DNA of 64,000 nt, from NCBI GenBank assembly GCA_014607495.2, contig CP053156.1, forward strand, positions 1,488,001 through 1,552,000, given 5' to 3'. The notes below the pieces were generated by a model. That model did not search any database, was not told where the DNA came from, and saw nothing but the letters and a program-made list of their open reading frames with translations. Source of the DNA: Carposina sasakii. Lineage: Eukaryota > Arthropoda > Insecta > Lepidoptera > Carposinidae. Position numbers and translations under genes: made by a program. The first letter of the stretch is position 1. The number at the start of each line of letters is the position of its first letter. Below, one piece after another: positions 27,450 through 64,000 of this stretch.

Positions 27450-29003
27450 ATGCCCAATTGTGTAGTAAAAGGGTGCAGAAGTCAATCTTCGATAAACAAA
27501 AAGGAAGACGGGGTCACATTTCATACGTAAGTTACAATATTTAAAAAATAATAATAATGAGGTTATTTCATGGGACAATACTGCGCAGAGAGAGAGAGAT
27601 AGAGAGATAGAGACAGAGAAAGAAAGAAAGAGAGTGAGTACATATGACCTTCACACAGGCGGTTTCTATAATAATTTACCTTTAGCTCGTTCACATGCAA
27701 ATTAGCATTGTTTTACAAGTCCCAGTATCTACTTTCTAGAAGGAACTTACTCGTATTTGCTATCATAGGTACGATTACAAGCAATAAATTGAGGTAGGTA
27801 ATGTATATGCGTAACTTTTTCAACTACTGTATTGGCTCGCTTTTCATCACTTCATATTTTGTGACAATGTTTCGATAGCTATAAAAAAATATAGTAATAT
27901 TATACAAAAAAATACAGTTTGCATGAGCGCAAAACTAGCTCACCTATTTGAGCTAAGCTGAACTAAAAATACCACTTTTGGTTCATAGATCTAGGAGGTC
28001 TGTTGGACTACAACAACAACAACAAGATATATATTATATATAACACATAAAGTTAGGTAGACTTAGGATTCTAATTGGTATGATGACTATGGATAAATTT
28101 TAATAACATTTATCAGAGTTAACCATCAGAAAACATACCCATCTGTACAATTTGATTTAGTGTTCAAATGAGGTAATAATAACCATCCAAAGTTAGGTGG
28201 GCAAGTCCATTATTAAAGTGTGAGATTAATAGAACATTACAACATCACAATGACAACCTGCCTAATTTACAGCAACTTTTGTTATGTAACCATATTTATA
28301 AACGCAACATTTAATAAAGCTGTCGAGCAATAGTTCTTTAATAAGCATACTAGTAACTTAAGCATACTAGTAACTTACCTATATACCTGTATACTAGTAC
28401 CTATTTGCCGAATTCAGATTTAAAAAAATTTCGAAGTCGTGTTTTATTAATAGGTATTTAATATTCATGTTTCCACTAAATTCTATAAGTTTTTTTTTCA
28501 GATTTCCAAGGCGAGATCAAAATGTGAAAAACAAGTGGATTGAAGTTATTCGCCGGAGTCGTAATGAACCATTATGGAATCCGAAAAGCCGCACTGTAGT
28601 GTGTTCTGAGCATTTCAAAGCAGAAGACTTTTACTTCACAAAAAATGGCTTATTTCGAGTAAATAAAAATGTATATCCAAACATACTGCCTGGCGTTCCA
28701 CAGGAATTGGACCACGCTCCCGCTGTAGATCCGCTTCAAACTGCCATGCCTAACAAATTATCGAATTCAGAACCTTCATCTACATCATCTGTTTCTCAAA
28801 AAATTAAAACAGAGGAAGATCCAAGTGTCGATATCGAGGAGTATGTTACACCCAACCAATGGCATCACCCTACCGCAACATCTCCTAGCCGAACTGCTGA
28901 AGCAGGCCAAACATTTCTAGATTCAAACACCTTGAATCCTTCAGTAGCTATTAAAAATATTAAATTAGAGGAAGATGCATCTATCTACGTTGTAAGTATT
29001 TGA
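27450..29003 (+). CDS. THAP-domain zinc-finger protein, N-terminal exons
   Basis: Exon 1 is 27450-27526 (donor GTAAGT). Exon 2 starts 28502 after TTTTTTTTTCAG and reads in phase to a GTAAGT at 28992, or through it to TGA at 29001-29003. Residues 1-90 form a complete C2CH THAP domain: Cys4-x4-Cys9, Pro28, Trp38, Cys60-x2-His63 (VVCSEHF), and YPNILP as the AVPTIF-box equivalent. THAP domains bind DNA in the nucleus. The rest is acidic and Ser/Thr/Pro-rich with repeated IK(T/L)EED blocks near residues 136-145 and 185-192. The THAP domain shows no damage. After 28991 the frame breaks (next entry), so either the stop at 29003 is the true end, or an intron, indel or sequencing error lies there. Family certain; gene model uncertain. 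Confidence 0.8.
27587..27637. repeat. GA-rich microsatellite in THAP intron 1
   Basis: (GA)n, GATA-like and GAAA units run from 27587 to 27637. Confidence 0.85.
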
Positions 29004-58995: not shown

Positions 58996-59271
58996 TATTA
59001 TAAAATATTAATAAGAAAATGAAAAAATTCTTCACCCGAGTGAGATTTGAACTCACGACCACTCGCAAACCGTGCTTTCGCTCTAACCAACTGAGCTATC
59101 GGGTCAATTAACTCGGACGACGAATTTTACCATCTCTTTTAATTCCTCAGCACAATGTTTAATGATGAAACGATCAACCATATCCGAGCGGATTATATTA
59201 TGGAGAAGTATCTTATCTAAGATATTATATAATATATTATAAACTATTAATAAGAAAATGAAAAAATTCTT
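58996..59271 (-). mobile_element. tRNA-like insertion between 37-bp direct repeats
   Basis: TATTATAAAATATTAATAAG...AATTCTT at 58996-59032 is repeated with one mismatch at 59235-59271. The 202 bp between carry, on the minus strand, a tRNA-like unit (about 59034-59106) at the 3' end of the insert. It has a 6/7 acceptor stem (ACCCGA/TCGGGT core), a perfect D stem (GCTC/GAGC), a perfect T stem (GTGAG/CTCAC) and loop TTCAAAT. The anticodon stem pairs at only 2 of 5 positions, so it is not a working tRNA. It is probably a SINE or tRNA-derived retroposon. Confidence 0.65.
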
Positions 59272-60520
59272 AATAAATTACTTATGCCATATTTCACCGT
59301 GTGTCTTCATAAAACAACATACCTACGAGTACTTATAGATTTTTTATCCTACGACTAGCAATTACACCTGATGGCATTGGAGGACTCGAGTCTAGACAGA
59401 CAAAGCTTACATAAATAGTGCAAGGCCCCCATCGCATACTAGCTTGTATTGACTCTGAAACACAGAATATTATTTTAGCACTTTTAACACCACTCAGTAG
59501 GTAGTTGTAAGTTGTAGGCCACTCTACTTGTCTTCTTTATCACAAACATTAGAATAAAAATTCATATAATATCAGTCTTCCGTGTTGGTAGTTAAATATA
59601 TTTCAGGATTAGTATTTTAAAATGAATTGATTACTTACAAATAAACCAGTTACATTTCGGTTGAAAGCGGGAAGTCTACCTTTTCTTAACTTAAAATCTA
59701 CAGTAGCACTTCTGCTATAAGCGTTACAAAGAAAAAGCGTAAAAATGATAAGCTAAAGGTTAATTGTAGGCGATTTTTCAACACTTCCAACACTGTGTTT
59801 CGTTGATTACACTCAAGATAATCCTTTATTAACTGCCTTAAGCCCCAGATTTACAATGAGCAAAACCACTTTTTGGAATATAAAGTAGGTATGTGTCGGC
59901 GACGAAGACATGAAACCTACCCAAATTGAATGATTCGATATTATGTACATATAGATAAGGTTGATATTTGAATAAAGAGTTTGCAATATATGTTAGGTAT
60001 AGCGCTAACATTAAGTTTGTACTAGGTAGGGTTGTTTTGTGTCTGACTTATTTCTTATCCCTTTGAGTTTTATTAGGTGTAGGTAGCTATTCTGAGCACA
60101 TTAAGAGTATTTTTAAGTAAATTGAATAATTACTTTAGTAGATATTTGCGATTCATAGTTTATTAAGATTTTGAACTTCTGCTCACAGTAGCTTCGAGAA
60201 TATTCCAATTAGAATGAATCTAATTATTTCTTATTAGAGTTCAGTTTATGCCCTTTCTAGTGATATATAACTCATGTATATAGATTGTGTAAATTAGATT
60301 TTATTAAGGGCTAAACTTAGCAAGTCGGTAAAATTTGTAAAATTTTTGACTTTTCTCCTTTGACAACTTTTTATTGTTTAAACTTAGAAAGAAGATTCTT
60401 ATATAATTAGATAGAGCTAATTAAGACCTTTTTAACAATGTATAACACATGTATGTAATGTTTATTTTGAAATAAATATAGGGCGCAAAAGAGGTCAGTC
60501 AAGGGACAAACTAGATAAAA
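59272..60520. other. noncoding stretch before the BEL/Pao-type element
   Basis: AT-rich, no gene recognised; base composition changes abruptly after about 60520. Confidence 0.45.
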
Positions 60521-60827
60521 TGTTAGAAGAAATCGTAGAGAATTTCTACCGCGTTCCAGACGGTAAGGGTGAACCGTCGACATATTTGTAAGTCGCACGG
60601 ATTTTGTGTGTTCAATCCGAGGCGAGTTCCTAAGAAGAAAAATAAGAAGAAAAGTGAAAAGGAAGCAAAATAGGAACAAGAGAAGCCACTGAAGACTGCC
60701 TGAAGACTGACCTCTTGCCCGCAGTTTGGAAGAAAAGTGTGTTTTGTCTCTCTCACTCCCGCGTACGACAACAACATACAGGGGTGCGACAGCAACATAC
60801 AGTGGGTGGGTTTGACAACAACATACA
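60521..60827 (+). mobile_element. candidate 5' LTR of the BEL/Pao-type element
   Basis: A TG...CA segment (TGTTAGAAGAAATC to AACAACATACA) of 307 bp precedes the GC-rich leader. Three ACA(A/G)CAACATACA-like units close it (about 60769-60827). GGGTGACCGGCGCG at 60831 resembles BEL primer-binding sites, which often contain TGGTGACC. An AATAAA-like AAATAAATA lies at 60471, outside. The partner LTR is beyond the window, so the boundaries are provisional. Confidence 0.3.
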
Positions 60828-61070
60828 ATAGGGTGACCGGCGCGTATTTAGTACGCGACGACGCCGCGGCTGATATCGGAGCTGCGCACACGGGTGAAGG
60901 GTGCGCGAGGCGGACGCGACCAGCGCGGGTTTGGGAGTTACGCCCCGGGCCCACCGCGTTCGTCACCCCGGGATCCTTTCCCCGGCCGGACCCGCTGAAA
61001 CGGGAGCTGGCCGCAACAGATGGTCCTTCGAGCCGGATCCTTCGGACAAGAGAAGATATCAGCGCAGAAG
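60828..61070 (+). other. GC-rich leader of the BEL/Pao-type element
   Basis: This is a sharply GC-rich tract (CGCGACGACGCCGCGGC, CGCCCCGGGCCCACCG) between the putative LTR and the first start codon. Overlapping frames of 79-147 codons on both strands are composition artefacts. It probably contains the packaging and primer region; inferred. Confidence 0.4.
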
Positions 61071-61559
61071 ATGCCGGTCACCAGATCGCAACACGGAAGG
61101 TCTTCGGCACAAGAAGAGGATAGAACATCATCAGAGATGACTTCGGGAACGACTTCTTCTGAAGCGACTTCGGGCACCACAGGAACGTCGACTATGGATT
61201 CCGCCGGGACGAAGACGACAGGCTCTGGCACGATGGCCAGTGCCGCTGGTACAGAAGAACACCCGAAGAAGAAGAGCTCTTCAGCACTCACCTTGGTTCC
61301 AGTGAAGGCACCCTCGCTCGCCAAGTCGAAGCGCTCCCGGAAGAAGGAGCTTGAGGCGCGTGAGGAACTGGCACGTCTAAAGTTAATGAAGATAGAAGCT
61401 GAAGCAAAATTGGCAGAAGCAAGACTGGCTCGTATCCAATATGAAGATGAAGAGGACGAGTCCAGATCAGAAGACGAGGAGCCTGAAGACAGAACGGCGC
61501 ACGTGCAAGAATGGGTCCGAGCGACGATGGACGTTGAAGAAAAGGAGGGGAGCCGATGA
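61071..61559 (+). CDS. BEL/Pao-type element ORF1: charged coiled-coil Gag N-terminus
   Basis: ATG61071 (MPVTRSQHGRSS) is chosen because BEL-type Gag proteins commonly begin with a TRSQ-like motif; an in-frame ATG also lies at 61020. The protein has 162 residues. A Ser/Thr/Gly-rich N-terminal half is followed by a basic stretch (LAKSKRSRKKELEAREE) and a long helix rich in Glu, Lys, Leu and Ala (about residues 85-130), probably a coiled coil for Gag assembly. It ends in acidic residues. In the BEL-type proteins I know, this region is fused to the DUF1759 domain. Here a TGA at 61557 separates it, overlapping the ATG of the next ORF as ATGA. Whether the break is natural recoding, reinitiation or an indel is open. 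Confidence 0.65.
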   Translation: MPVTRSQHGRSSAQEEDRTSSEMTSGTTSSEATSGTTGTSTMDSAGTKTTGSGTMASAAGTEEHPKKKSSSALTLVPVKAPSLAKSKRSRKKELEAREELARLKLMKIEAEAKLAEARLARIQYEDEEDESRSEDEEPEDRTAHVQEWVRATMDVEEKEGSR

Positions 61560-64000
61560 AGGAAGCTCTTCCAGCCATCGACGCGAGGCCGCACGAGTCT
61601 TCAGGGTACCGAGTCAGCGAGTTGGCTGGAGCTATCAAGATGGCGATGGAGTCCAGTCCAGTGAGAAGTCCAGCACCGCCACCCAGTTATATGCACGAGT
61701 TACCTGCCTTCGAGGGAAACAGCGCGGAATGGCTGGCCTTCAAGAGAGTATATGAAGATACTGCACCACTCTTCTCAAGCACTCAGAATATGGCGCGGCT
61801 GAGAAGAGCGCTGAAGGGGGCAGCAAGAGAGGCGATCAAGAATATTTTATATTCTGATTCTGCACCTGAAGAAATCATCGATGCGTTGCGTAGAAGATTT
61901 GGAAGACCAGATGCTTTGGTGATGCACGAACTGGAAAGAATGAAGGCATTACCGAAGATCATGGATACTGCGAGGGATGTATGCTTATTCGCCAGCATCG
62001 TCAGTAATGGGGTTGCGACGATCAAGAATCTGAAGAAGATACATTTCCTGTATTCGCCAGAGATGAAGAAGGCCATCGAAGAGAAGATGGGTCCTATCAT
62101 GAAGTTTAGATGGTACGACTTCGCCGCTGAACATGAAGACAGTGAAGAGCCGGACCTGGTGTTGATGTCCAGGTTCCTAGACCGAGAAGCTGATAGATGT
62201 GGAGCATATGCAGCACCTGAAACGCCGAGAAGATTTGGCCTGAAGCAACACTTCACGCATCAGACTACGGAGAAGCCAAGGCCGCCGGAGCAACGAGTAG
62301 AACCAACGCGGGCTGAGAAGATGGAGTGTCCAGCTTGCCGAGGGGAGCACCGGCTGTATGAATGTCGACGCTTCAAGGAGTCTTCGGTGCAAGAGAGATG
62401 GGATATTGTGAAGAAGTCCAGGCTATGCTTCAAGTGTCTGCATAGTCCTCATCGGAAGGAAACCTGCAAGAGACCTCCATGCAAGATCTGCAAGCGTCTT
62501 CATCATCAACTGCTGCACAATACAGAGAAGAGACAGCAGCAGCCGGAGAAAGAAGAAGAAGAAGACGTCCAAGAGGTCTCCAATCACGTCATGCTGCCGG
62601 TCAACACTGCGAGTACAGCAAGAGCCTTCCTGAAGATAATTCCTGTGGAGTTGTATGGTCCCAGGGGTTCGGAGAAGGTCCTGGCGCTACTGGATGAAGG
62701 GTCTACCGTATCACTGTTAGACTCAGCAGTGGCAGAGAAGATTGGAGCGTCAGGACCGGAAGAGACTTTGGCGATATCCACTGTCGGCGGGAAGACTATT
62801 ATGAAGAAGAACTCTCAAAGGCTGTCTATGGAGATACGAGGAGTTCATCAAGAGGGCAAGAAGAGATTGAACGAGGTTCGAACAATTGACAAGATGGACC
62901 TCGCGCCTCAATACGTCAAGAAGTCTAGGATAGAAGAATGCTCACATCTGAAGAAGATGGCAGACCAGCTGCACTACAATGAAGATCCACCACAGTTGTT
63001 GATTGGGCAAGACAACTGGCACCTCATCGTGTCAAGAGCCATCAGGAGGGGAAAGAAGAACCAACCCATCGCCTCCCTCACTGAGTTAGGTTGGGTACTG
63101 CATGGCACCGATGGAGGAGAGTCGAAGCCAGTGCACTTCATCAACTGTGCGCAGCTGGCTGGAGAAGAAGATGACCACATGGAGAAGATTATCAAGGAGC
63201 ATTTCAGTATTGAGTCGCTGGGGATACAGCCTCGTCGCCCGAGTATGGATATTGAAGCCAAGGCCCTGCAGACACTGGAGAAGACAAGTCGTCGCATTGA
63301 AGGAGGTCGCTTCGAAACAGGACTTCTATGGAAGACAGAAGATGAAAGGATGCCTGCTAGCTACAAATCTGCTGAGAACAGATTGAAGAATATTGAGAAG
63401 AAGCTAGACCAGGACATCGATATGAAGGAAGAATGGCCAGCACCCAGATCCTTCAAGACGAAGCCTACTGGGGAAGAAAAGAATGCAGTAGTTGCTGCAA
63501 TCGCTGGCCCGAAGATGATGACTCCTGATCCACTGAGGTTCTCCAGCTGGACAAGATTATGGAGAGCAACTGCCAGAGTTTTGCAGTTCATTGACATGTG
63601 CAGAAAGAAGAATCGAGTCCACGCTGCGAGGAAGAGAGAAAAAGACGACACCTCGTGGAAAGTCAACAGGAAGAAGAATGTCCCTGCAAGACCAGTTACC
63701 GTGAAGAAGAGCAAAGAAGTACGTCGCTTCATACCTCTAGAAGCTACGTACTTAGAGCAAGCAGAAAAGCTTCTACTACAAAGAAGCCAGAGAGATTGTT
63801 TTGAAGAGGAGATGACCTGCCTGCGAAGATCGAAACCTCTAGACAGAAGTAGTAAATTGAAGAAGTTGGATGTCATAGAAGAGAATGGTCTACTACATCT
63901 ACGAGGAAGAATCGACGCGGCACAGAACATTGATCGCAACTTCAAAAGACCAGTTGTATTGGATGGGAAGAATTACGTCACGAAGTTGCTGATCCAGCAC
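61556..64000 (+). CDS. BEL/Pao-type Gag-protease-integrase polyprotein lacking reverse transcriptase (partial)
   Basis: I find no stop in 815 codons, and the frame runs off the window. Order: DUF1759-like Gag core (from LPAFEGNSAEWLAFKRVYED, residue 49); three zinc knuckles (Cys258 CPACRGEHRLYEC, Cys291 CFKCLHSPHRKETC, Cys309 CKICKRLHHQLLH); DUF1758-like aspartic protease with LLDEGSTVSLLD (Asp380); the link to polymerase (LIGQDNW, TELGWVLHGT, GRFETGLLW at 584). At residues 620-626 the text jumps from the start of the polymerase region to EEWPAPRSFK, which normally lies after RNase H. Then follow TPDPLRFSSWTRLWRATARV and the pre-integrase part (LRGRIDAAQN, LLIQH at the edge). No YxDD or RNase H motif is present. 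It cannot replicate alone; Gag and protease look intact, integrase is not fully seen. Start is the ATG of the ATGA overlap. Confidence 0.85.
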   Translation, partial: MKEALPAIDARPHESSGYRVSELAGAIKMAMESSPVRSPAPPPSYMHELPAFEGNSAEWLAFKRVYEDTAPLFSSTQNMARLRRALKGAAREAIKNILYSDSAPEEIIDALRRRFGRPDALVMHELERMKALPKIMDTARDVCLFASIVSNGVATIKNLKKIHFLYSPEMKKAIEEKMGPIMKFRWYDFAAEHEDSEEPDLVLMSRFLDREADRCGAYAAPETPRRFGLKQHFTHQTTEKPRPPEQRVEPTRAEKMECPACRGEHRLYECRRFKESSVQERWDIVKKSRLCFKCLHSPHRKETCKRPPCKICKRLHHQLLHNTEKRQQQPEKEEEEDVQEVSNHVMLPVNTASTARAFLKIIPVELYGPRGSEKVLALLDEGSTVSLLDSAVAEKIGASGPEETLAISTVGGKTIMKKNSQRLSMEIRGVHQEGKKRLNEVRTIDKMDLAPQYVKKSRIEECSHLKKMADQLHYNEDPPQLLIGQDNWHLIVSRAIRRGKKNQPIASLTELGWVLHGTDGGESKPVHFINCAQLAGEEDDHMEKIIKEHFSIESLGIQPRRPSMDIEAKALQTLEKTSRRIEGGRFETGLLWKTEDERMPASYKSAENRLKNIEKKLDQDIDMKEEWPAPRSFKTKPTGEEKNAVVAAIAGPKMMTPDPLRFSSWTRLWRATARVLQFIDMCRKKNRVHAARKREKDDTSWKVNRKKNVPARPVTVKKSKEVRRFIPLEATYLEQAEKLLLQRSQRDCFEEEMTCLRRSKPLDRSSKLKKLDVIEENGLLHLRGRIDAAQNIDRNFKRPVVLDGKNYVTKLLIQH

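What the first reader, a model, noticed from the sequence alone, without database searches (positions are those of the whole stretch)
61556..64000. BEL/Pao-type polyprotein with a clean in-frame loss of reverse transcriptase and RNase H
Seen: one frame without stops for 815 codons from Gag through protease to the integrase-proximal region. At residues 620-626 (about 63,413-63,433) it passes from the section that normally precedes the polymerase fingers straight to EEWPAPRSFK and the TPDPLRFSSW block that normally follow RNase H. Known: Bel/Pao Pol is protease-RT-RNase H-integrase in that order. Inferred: an in-frame deletion of roughly 2 kb, with no later decay in the remaining 2.4 kb. Keeping Gag, zinc knuckles, protease and pre-integrase open without a polymerase suggests either a recent event or selection, for example a non-autonomous Gag-PR-IN family or a domesticated gene making particles.
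Basis: partly seen in the sequence, partly recalled or inferred. Interest (0 to 1): 0.88.

Follow-up and report, generated by a model that had tools for sequence, protein, structure and literature searches.

The report
RT-less jumping gene family
An LTR retrotransposon, probably of a moth or butterfly, has cleanly lost its copying enzyme but keeps its particle, protease and integrase genes, and has spread as a small family, most likely by borrowing the missing enzyme from intact siblings with which it swaps sequence; a second butterfly may have done the same thing independently.

Summary
The window holds the 5' part of a 6.37-kb BEL/Pao LTR retrotransposon (5' LTR 59,894-61,018) whose frame passes from protease to the pre-integrase region at 63,426-63,427 with no reverse transcriptase (RT) or RNase H. 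Three genome searches return the same 10 RT-less copies on 9 contigs. Nine have perfect 5-bp target duplications and LTR pairs with 0-3 mismatches per ~1.1 kb: separate, recent insertions. Seven of 10 keep one open Gag-PR-IN frame; the window copy does not, its Gag N-terminus being out of frame. At least 40 siblings match only up to the junction; seven of 10 fetched whole have one open frame with YMDD. The loss is a 1,482-bp in-frame deletion, tagged by one SNP (10 of 10 RT-less, 0 of 35 RT-bearing). Elsewhere the classes share polymorphisms and even swap LTRs, which fits co-packaging and template switching. Gene models in Epargyreus clarus suggest a second, independent RT-less family. Best reading: a semi-autonomous, trans-mobilised subfamily, not a host gene; selection on its frame is suggested, not proven.

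The parts
59889..59893 (.). 5-bp target-site duplication (left copy, GTATG; right copy follows the 3' LTR outside the window)
59894..61018 (+). 5' LTR, 1,125 bp, TG...CA; 0 mismatches and one gap column to its 3' LTR over 1,126 aligned bases
61021..61038 (+). primer binding site TGGTCCTTCGAGCCGGAT, identical in 20 of 20 copies fetched whole; assignment to tRNA-Tyr is recalled, not tested
61020..61559 (+). Gag N-terminal part (charged, coiled-coil-like by eye), in a different frame from the rest and closed by TGA; the shift was seen in this copy only (1 of 20)
61556..64000 (+). main open frame: rest of Gag, protease, pre-integrase region; runs on past the window to the 3' LTR
61709..62131 (+). 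DUF1759 (found in BEL/Pao Gag), E 5e-12
62327..62518 (+). three CCHC/CCHH-like zinc-knuckle motifs
62672..62806 (+). retroviral-type aspartyl protease core with LLDEGS (Asp_protease_2 E 8e-4, below Pfam cut-off)
63410..63410 (+). diagnostic SNP (Lys to Gln codon): in 10 of 10 RT-less and 0 of 35 RT-bearing copies examined
63426..63427 (+). deletion junction (2-bp overlap inside an imperfect 8-of-10 direct repeat); 1,482 bp with RT, connection and RNase H absent
63428..64000 (+). post-RNase H / pre-integrase region, start of integrase part

Best explanation
This is one copy of a semi-autonomous, RT-minus subfamily of a (probably lepidopteran) BEL/Pao LTR retrotransposon. SHOWN: an in-frame 1,482-bp deletion took out reverse transcriptase and RNase H and left Gag, protease and integrase in one frame; the deleted form sits at 10 places, nine of them ordinary recent LTR-retrotransposon insertions, beside at least 40 sibling left arms that stop at the junction, with RT-bearing copies about 98-99% identical to it. 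INFERRED: the deletion arose once; RT-less RNA is packaged together with RT-bearing RNA in shared particles, using the same LTRs, primer site and Gag; RT supplied in trans copies both; template switching in mixed particles exchanges nearly everything except the sequence next to the deletion. INFERRED with less certainty: the RT-less polyprotein is still made and useful to its own RNA (Gag, protease, integrase in cis), which would explain why the frame stays open in most copies.
For: Same 10 places from three query haplotypes. Same junction and linked SNP in 10 of 10 RT-less; SNP in 0 of 35 RT-bearing. Nine of 10 have perfect 5-bp duplications and LTR pairs with 0-3 mismatches of ~1,100. One 1,392-1,393-codon frame in 7 of 10 RT-less; one 1,881-1,887-codon frame with YMDD in 7 of 10 RT-bearing copies fetched whole. 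Exchange: 27 left and 15 right shared polymorphisms against one fixed difference; 29 shared and 0 fixed in LTRs. Tree of 60+60 bp at the junction has one class change in 44 copies (0 of 2000 shuffles as low); flank tree of 19 copies has 7, no better than shuffles (1567 of 2000 as low). L013 and L015 differ by 0.1% in the left internal part (0.5% in the right) but 1.5% in the LTR, while L013's LTR is 0.2% from RT-bearing L020.
Against: No expression, particle or mobilisation data. The window copy has a broken Gag N-terminus, and L017 and L018 have broken frames (many one-base indels in base runs, possibly sequence error), so an intact frame is not needed in every copy. Ectopic gene conversion between genomic copies could also mix polymorphisms. 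Selection tests mix RT-less mutations with variants acquired from RT-bearing copies: four of the 'private' RT-less variants turned up in RT-bearing L077/L078. Intact and broken copies do not differ significantly in N:S (Fisher p 0.39), and the broken copy L017 itself shows few nonsynonymous changes (5N:7S). Only 40 of 148-149 candidates were scored per search, so rarer classes may be missed.
Confidence: 0.88

Rival explanations
1. Recurrent deletion: the short imperfect repeat is a hot spot where reverse transcription repeatedly skips RT and RNase H, so RT-less copies arise anew from several RT-bearing lineages and are dead ends.
For: Three RT-less haplotypes exist near the junction; haplotype C is also present in RT-bearing L077 and L078 up to ~50 bp from the junction. 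RT-less copies are scattered among RT-bearing ones on the flank tree.
Against: All 10 share the junction and a SNP 16 bp before it that 35 of 35 RT-bearing copies examined lack. Haplotype B (4 copies, 6 linked variants) has no RT-bearing counterpart among the 30 half matches scored in its own search, so it most likely arose after the deletion. The 60+60-bp core gives one class change in 44 copies.
Confidence: 0.08
2. Passive freeloader: the RT-less polyprotein is irrelevant; the element is mobilised only through its LTRs and packaging signal, and its frame looks open merely because it is young and constantly refreshed by recombination with RT-bearing siblings. (This shares the trans-mobilisation of the best explanation and denies only its last step.)
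For: Window copy and L017 inserted recently (0 LTR mismatches) although their frames are broken. Flanks recombine freely. Intact and broken copies do not differ significantly in N:S.
Against: In the 7 intact RT-less copies, variants within ~1 kb of the junction that no RT-bearing copy examined has are 7 nonsynonymous to 9 synonymous (neutral 73% nonsynonymous, p 0.011), no weaker than RT-bearing 23:19. The four haplotype-B copies are all fully open. L017's breaks may be sequence errors.
Confidence: 0.35
3. Domesticated host gene making particles.
For: Gag-protease-integrase frame open without a polymerase.
Against: Ten dispersed copies, nine with own target duplications and almost identical LTR pairs; window copy 98-99% identical to RT-bearing copies.
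Confidence: 0.02
4. Assembly artefact or private deletion.
For: None found.
Against: Same junction at 10 places on 9 contigs.
Confidence: 0.01

Closest known systems
Mouse IAP 1-delta-1 elements (PMC6466679, passages seen)
   Same: An internal deletion gives a fused open frame; the deleted form is non-autonomous, depends on other IAPs in trans, and accounts for most new IAP insertion mutations; the fusion protein is reported there to help retrotransposition in cis.
   Different: IAP 1-delta-1 loses part of gag and pol (1.9 kb); here Gag, protease and integrase are kept and RT plus RNase H is lost (1,482 bp). Retroelement class differs (insect BEL/Pao versus mouse endogenous retrovirus).
Wheat RLG_Sabrina_SA 'semi-autonomous' Gypsy elements (PMC9744471, passages and section 17)
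   Same: Keep Gag and protease without RT; thought to rely on an autonomous partner and to contribute Gag to a cooperative complex.
   Different: Sabrina lacks integrase too and shares hardly any homology with its partner; here integrase is kept and partner and dependant are ~99% identical and recombining.
ETn/MusD in mouse (PMC6466679, passages); BARE-2/BARE-1 in barley (PMC9744471, section 17)
   Same: Non-autonomous LTR element carried by an autonomous sibling.
   Different: ETn has no coding capacity and BARE-2 has a disrupted Gag; neither is a Gag-PR-IN form.
RT-less Gag-PR-IN gene models of Epargyreus clarus (P0033-P0036)
   Same: BEL/Pao relatives with DUF1759, protease motif, H2C2 integrase and DUF5641, no YMDD; four clusters standing for 28 sequences; an RT-bearing counterpart in the same species (P0040, 6 sequences, YMDD, 92-98% identical per aligned piece).
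   Different: Different junction (more kept on both sides), 46-47% identical in the junction region: an independent loss if real. Known only as gene models, so an intron is not excluded.
BEL/Pao elements of Lepidoptera with complete Pol (e.g. P0046 Trichoplusia ni, P0052 Plutella xylostella)
   Same: Domains, length (1,873 and 1,884 aa) and homology of the parent family.
   Different: They keep RT (YMDD) and RNase H.

Membership tests
BEL/Pao LTR retrotransposon | LTRs TG...CA and 5-bp target-site duplication | tested here: met
   9 of 10 RT-less copies; of L018's 5' LTR only 385 bp aligned
BEL/Pao LTR retrotransposon | Gag DUF1759, BEL-type protease, H2C2 integrase, DUF5641 in one frame | tested here: met
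   in pieces (protease and integrase-core matches below Pfam cut-off); one frame in 7 of 10 copies
BEL/Pao LTR retrotransposon | RT and RNase H (Peptidase_A17/RVT_1) between protease and integrase | tested here: not met
   junction without them in 10 of 10 copies; present in sibling L022. It is a deletion derivative of BEL/Pao, not a complete member
BEL/Pao LTR retrotransposon | Closest relatives by sequence are BEL/Pao | tested here: met
   RT-bearing siblings 98-99% identical
Non-autonomous LTR retrotransposon mobilised in trans | Lacks an essential enzyme, yet many recent insertions | tested here: met
Non-autonomous LTR retrotransposon mobilised in trans | Potentially autonomous partner with the same LTR and primer site in the genome | tested here: met
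Non-autonomous LTR retrotransposon mobilised in trans | Partner's RT actually copies it | not testable with these tools
   inferred from recombination between classes
Semi-autonomous element (contributes own proteins) | Retained frame open and constrained | tested here: inconclusive
   7 of 10 open; N:S below neutral but confounded by recombination; Fisher test intact versus broken not significant
IAP 1-delta-1 type | Deletion of part of gag and pol giving a Gag-Pol fusion | tested here: not met
   deletion lies between protease and integrase
Domesticated retroelement gene | Single conserved locus without LTRs | tested here: not met

The most novel reading that the evidence does not exclude
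Lepidopteran BEL/Pao elements repeatedly evolve a two-part system. Because the parent encodes Gag and Pol in one frame (hence equal amounts), RT-less Gag-PR-IN copies act as Gag and integrase donors that raise the Gag:RT ratio in mixed particles. They are kept by selection, stay joined to the parent by constant template switching, and have arisen at least twice (this species and Epargyreus clarus) by different deletions with the same outcome.
Probability: 0.22. Interest if true: 0.78.

Novelty: new variant of a known kind. Interest (0 to 1): 0.6.

Why it matters
From general knowledge, non-autonomous LTR elements often lose most coding sequence or lose Gag; losing just RT and RNase H while keeping Gag, protease and integrase in one frame is an unusual division of labour, and a second lepidopteran lineage may have reached it separately. 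Here partner and dependant are so similar and young that co-packaging, template switching and the benefit of supplying one's own Gag can be tested with ordinary RNA, proteomic and population data. The copies also give a natural measure of how close to a deletion recombination between retrotransposon genomes reaches (within about 50 bp).

Tried and rejected
Rejected: private deletion or assembly artefact; domesticated gene; repeated deletion as main source. An early reading of mine, that no exchange occurs within about 235 bp left of the junction, was an ascertainment artefact: the RT-bearing copies had been picked by similarity to the window's last 165 bp. A query with haplotype C found L077 and L078, which share that haplotype to about -50; the claim was narrowed. 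The low diversity of RT-bearing copies near the junction and the core counts are biased the same way and not used. I first took the ATGA overlap of the two window frames as possible recoding; 19 of 19 other copies show no shift there, so it is a private frameshift. L017 as proof that a broken copy moves was dropped: 18 indels, 13 of them one-base changes in base runs, against 12 private substitutions suggest sequence error. RT-less or RT-truncated gene models of Mythimna, Hyposmocoma, Parnassius, Heliothis and Euphydryas are leads only; the first protein search also favours short models by its length limit. Led nowhere: PDB sequence search (0 matches) and ARAGORN scan (0). A pattern census of the diagnostic SNP in RT-bearing copies and a search with an RT segment did not complete.

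Rows dropped before counts: alignment columns with a gap or non-base in any row; L021 has no right arm within its stretch, so right-hand counts use 9 of 10 or 34 of 35 RT-bearing copies, and the 19- and 44-copy trees leave it out; N:S uses the 7 intact RT-less and 7 intact RT-bearing copies of 10 and 10; skips variants near gaps; one search uses the 7 intact RT-less copies and skips gapped cells.

Literature: searches (titles and abstract starts of the rows listed only, a part of the hits in 32, 33, 47, 79 and 113) showed no report of an RT-less BEL/Pao family. Papers opened: PMC9744471 (passages, section 17), PMC6466679, PMC3442997, PMC3087523, PMC3286476 (passages only).
Full report
WHAT IS THERE. 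The window lies in an unnamed 399-Mb, 31-contig genome. The element begins at 59,894 with a 1,125-bp LTR, preceded by the target duplication GTATG, and carries an 18-base primer binding site at 61,021 that is the same in 20 of 20 copies fetched whole (assignment to tRNA-Tyr is recalled). The main frame, open from 61,556, encodes DUF1759 (Gag), zinc-knuckle-like motifs, a DEGS protease and the pre-integrase region. At 63,426-63,427 it jumps over RT and RNase H. Outside the window the same frame runs on into the 3' LTR. The whole element is about 6,369 bp with a matching right target duplication.

THE WINDOW COPY IS NOT FULLY INTACT. The N-terminal part of Gag (61,020-61,559) is in another frame and ends at TGA. 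Database relatives such as P0010 and P0016 have both parts in one protein, and 19 of 19 other copies fetched whole show no shift at that spot. Intact copies exist.

A FAMILY, NOT AN ACCIDENT. Searching the genome with 301 bp around the junction gave 10 full-length matches and 30 that stop at the junction, 40 of 149 candidates being scored. Queries from two other RT-less haplotypes returned the same 10 and added 5 and 5 new half matches, so at least 40 sibling left arms exist (40 of 148 scored each). The 10 RT-less copies lie on 9 contigs. I examined 35 of the 40 siblings, 10 as 10-kb stretches and 25 as short pieces; in 34 of 35 the right arm lies at the distance expected if RT and RNase H are present, about 1.49 kb; L021 has none within its stretch. 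Nine of 10 RT-less copies have perfect 5-bp duplications, all different, and LTR pairs with 0, 0, 1, 1, 0, 1, 3, 1 and 0 mismatches over about 1,100 bases; of the tenth (L018) only 385 bp of the 5' LTR aligned, with 18 mismatches of 377. The nine are separate and very recent insertions.

FRAMES. Seven of 10 RT-less copies have one open frame of 1,392-1,393 codons, stop to stop. L009 (the window copy), L017 and L018 do not. Of 10 RT-bearing copies fetched whole, seven have one open frame of 1,881-1,887 codons with YMDD. The stretch that L022 keeps and RT-less copies lack matches Peptidase_A17 and RVT_1. Both forms encode Gag and Pol in a single frame. The difference is 1,482 bp, 494 codons. The break lies in an imperfect direct repeat (8 of 10 bases, read), with 2 bp that cannot be assigned to either side, which fits strand transfer during reverse transcription (inference).

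ONE ORIGIN, FREE EXCHANGE. All 10 RT-less copies share the junction and a SNP at 63,410; 35 of 35 RT-bearing copies examined lack the SNP. It is the only fixed difference in gap-free columns of 2.4 kb to the left and 1.7 kb to the right, while 27 and 15 polymorphisms are shared by both classes (10 against 10 copies, 9 on the right). LTRs share 29 and differ at none. A tree of 60 bp on either side of the junction needs 1 class change in 44 copies (0 of 2000 label shuffles reach it). With 235 bp plus the right ~290 bp there are 2 changes (0 of 2000); the stretch 236-695 bp away has 6 changes in 45 copies against 9.2 in shuffles (6 of 2000), so some linkage persists there. The tree of the remaining internal sequence of 19 copies has 7 changes, no different from shuffles (mean 6.6; 1567 of 2000 as low). 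L013 and L015 are 0.1% apart in the left internal region (0.5% in the right) but 1.5% in the LTR, and L013's LTR is 0.2% from RT-bearing L020. The simplest account is one deletion, then repeated template switching with RT-bearing genomes in shared particles. Gene conversion between genomic copies is not excluded, but would have to be fast, since copies with nearly identical LTR pairs are already mosaic.

CORRECTION MADE ON THE WAY. RT-bearing copies were first chosen by similarity to the window, which hid haplotypes. The haplotype C query revealed two RT-bearing copies (L077, L078) carrying it to about -50 bp, with the RT-bearing letter at the SNP. Exchange therefore reaches to about 50 bp of the junction. 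Haplotype B (L013-L016) has no RT-bearing counterpart among the 30 half matches scored in its own search, so it most likely arose inside the RT-less lineage; all four of its copies are open.

IS THE FRAME UNDER SELECTION? Private variants in the 7 intact RT-less frames are 25 nonsynonymous to 33 synonymous; neutral expectation is 73% nonsynonymous, p about 1e-6. The 7 intact RT-bearing copies give 18:13 (p 0.046). Pairwise omega is 0.25 within RT-less, 0.35 within RT-bearing and 0.30 between. Some of these variants come from RT-bearing copies by exchange. Limited to about 1 kb around the junction and to variants absent from all RT-bearing copies examined there (35, or 34 on the right), RT-less gives 7:9 (p 0.011) and RT-bearing 23:19 (p 0.007). 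Against this: singletons of the old broken copy L018 are 33:16, not different from neutral, but those of the broken copy L017 are 5:7, and broken and intact copies do not differ significantly (Fisher p 0.39). So selection in cis is suggested, not proven.

ELSEWHERE. A search with residues 540-760 of the window frame found four clusters (28 sequences) of Epargyreus clarus gene models, 1,223-1,422 aa, that cover the junction region at 99-100% without YMDD. An RT-bearing counterpart in that species (P0040, 6 sequences, YMDD) shows that more is kept on both sides of that junction than here. This would be an independent loss with the same result, but gene models alone cannot rule out an intron.

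VERDICT. What it works like: a trans-mobilised, semi-autonomous retrotransposon, closest in logic to mouse IAP 1-delta-1 and wheat Sabrina_SA. What it is: a deletion derivative of a probably lepidopteran BEL/Pao family that fails the RT criterion of full membership. Nine of the 10 copies are young; dating in years would need a mutation rate that I did not establish here.

Noticed in passing
P0033-P0036, P0040 (Epargyreus clarus): A second RT-less Gag-PR-IN BEL/Pao family (28 gene-model sequences in four clusters) beside an RT-bearing counterpart (6 sequences), with a different junction.
   Followed up: partly
L017 (G000:C31) and L018 (G000:C7): Indel-rich RT-less copies (18 and 38 indels against L010), many of them one base in base runs; L017 has an LTR pair without mismatches. 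Either local sequence error or fast indel decay.
   Followed up: partly
L018, right arm: Right internal part is 3.1-3.7% from every other copy compared while its left part is only 0.8-1.6% away; an older or recombinant right half, unexplained.
   Followed up: no
window 28398-29003 (+): Open frame of 201 codons with a THAP domain (E 2e-10), perhaps an exon of a THAP-family gene or a transposase.
   Followed up: no
window 59032-59105 (-): tRNA match (Rfam RF00005, 41.6 bits) not called by ARAGORN with the bacterial code; perhaps a tRNA gene, pseudogene or tRNA-derived SINE.
   Followed up: no
L009 7550-8145 (just 3' of the element, outside the window): Array of ~128-bp tandem repeats, about 4.6 copies.
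   Followed up: no
window 60766-60808: Two tandem ~21-bp units (CGACAACAACATACAGTGGGTG) inside the LTR, present in both LTRs.
   Followed up: no
P0037 (Heliothis virescens), P0014 (Hyposmocoma), P0001/P0007 (Mythimna): Further BEL/Pao gene models that skip all or part of RT at other junctions; could be deletions or invented introns.
   Followed up: no
RT-less and RT-bearing copies, LTRs: LTRs of about 1,127 and about 1,102 bp occur in both classes, sorting independently of the RT deletion.
   Followed up: partly
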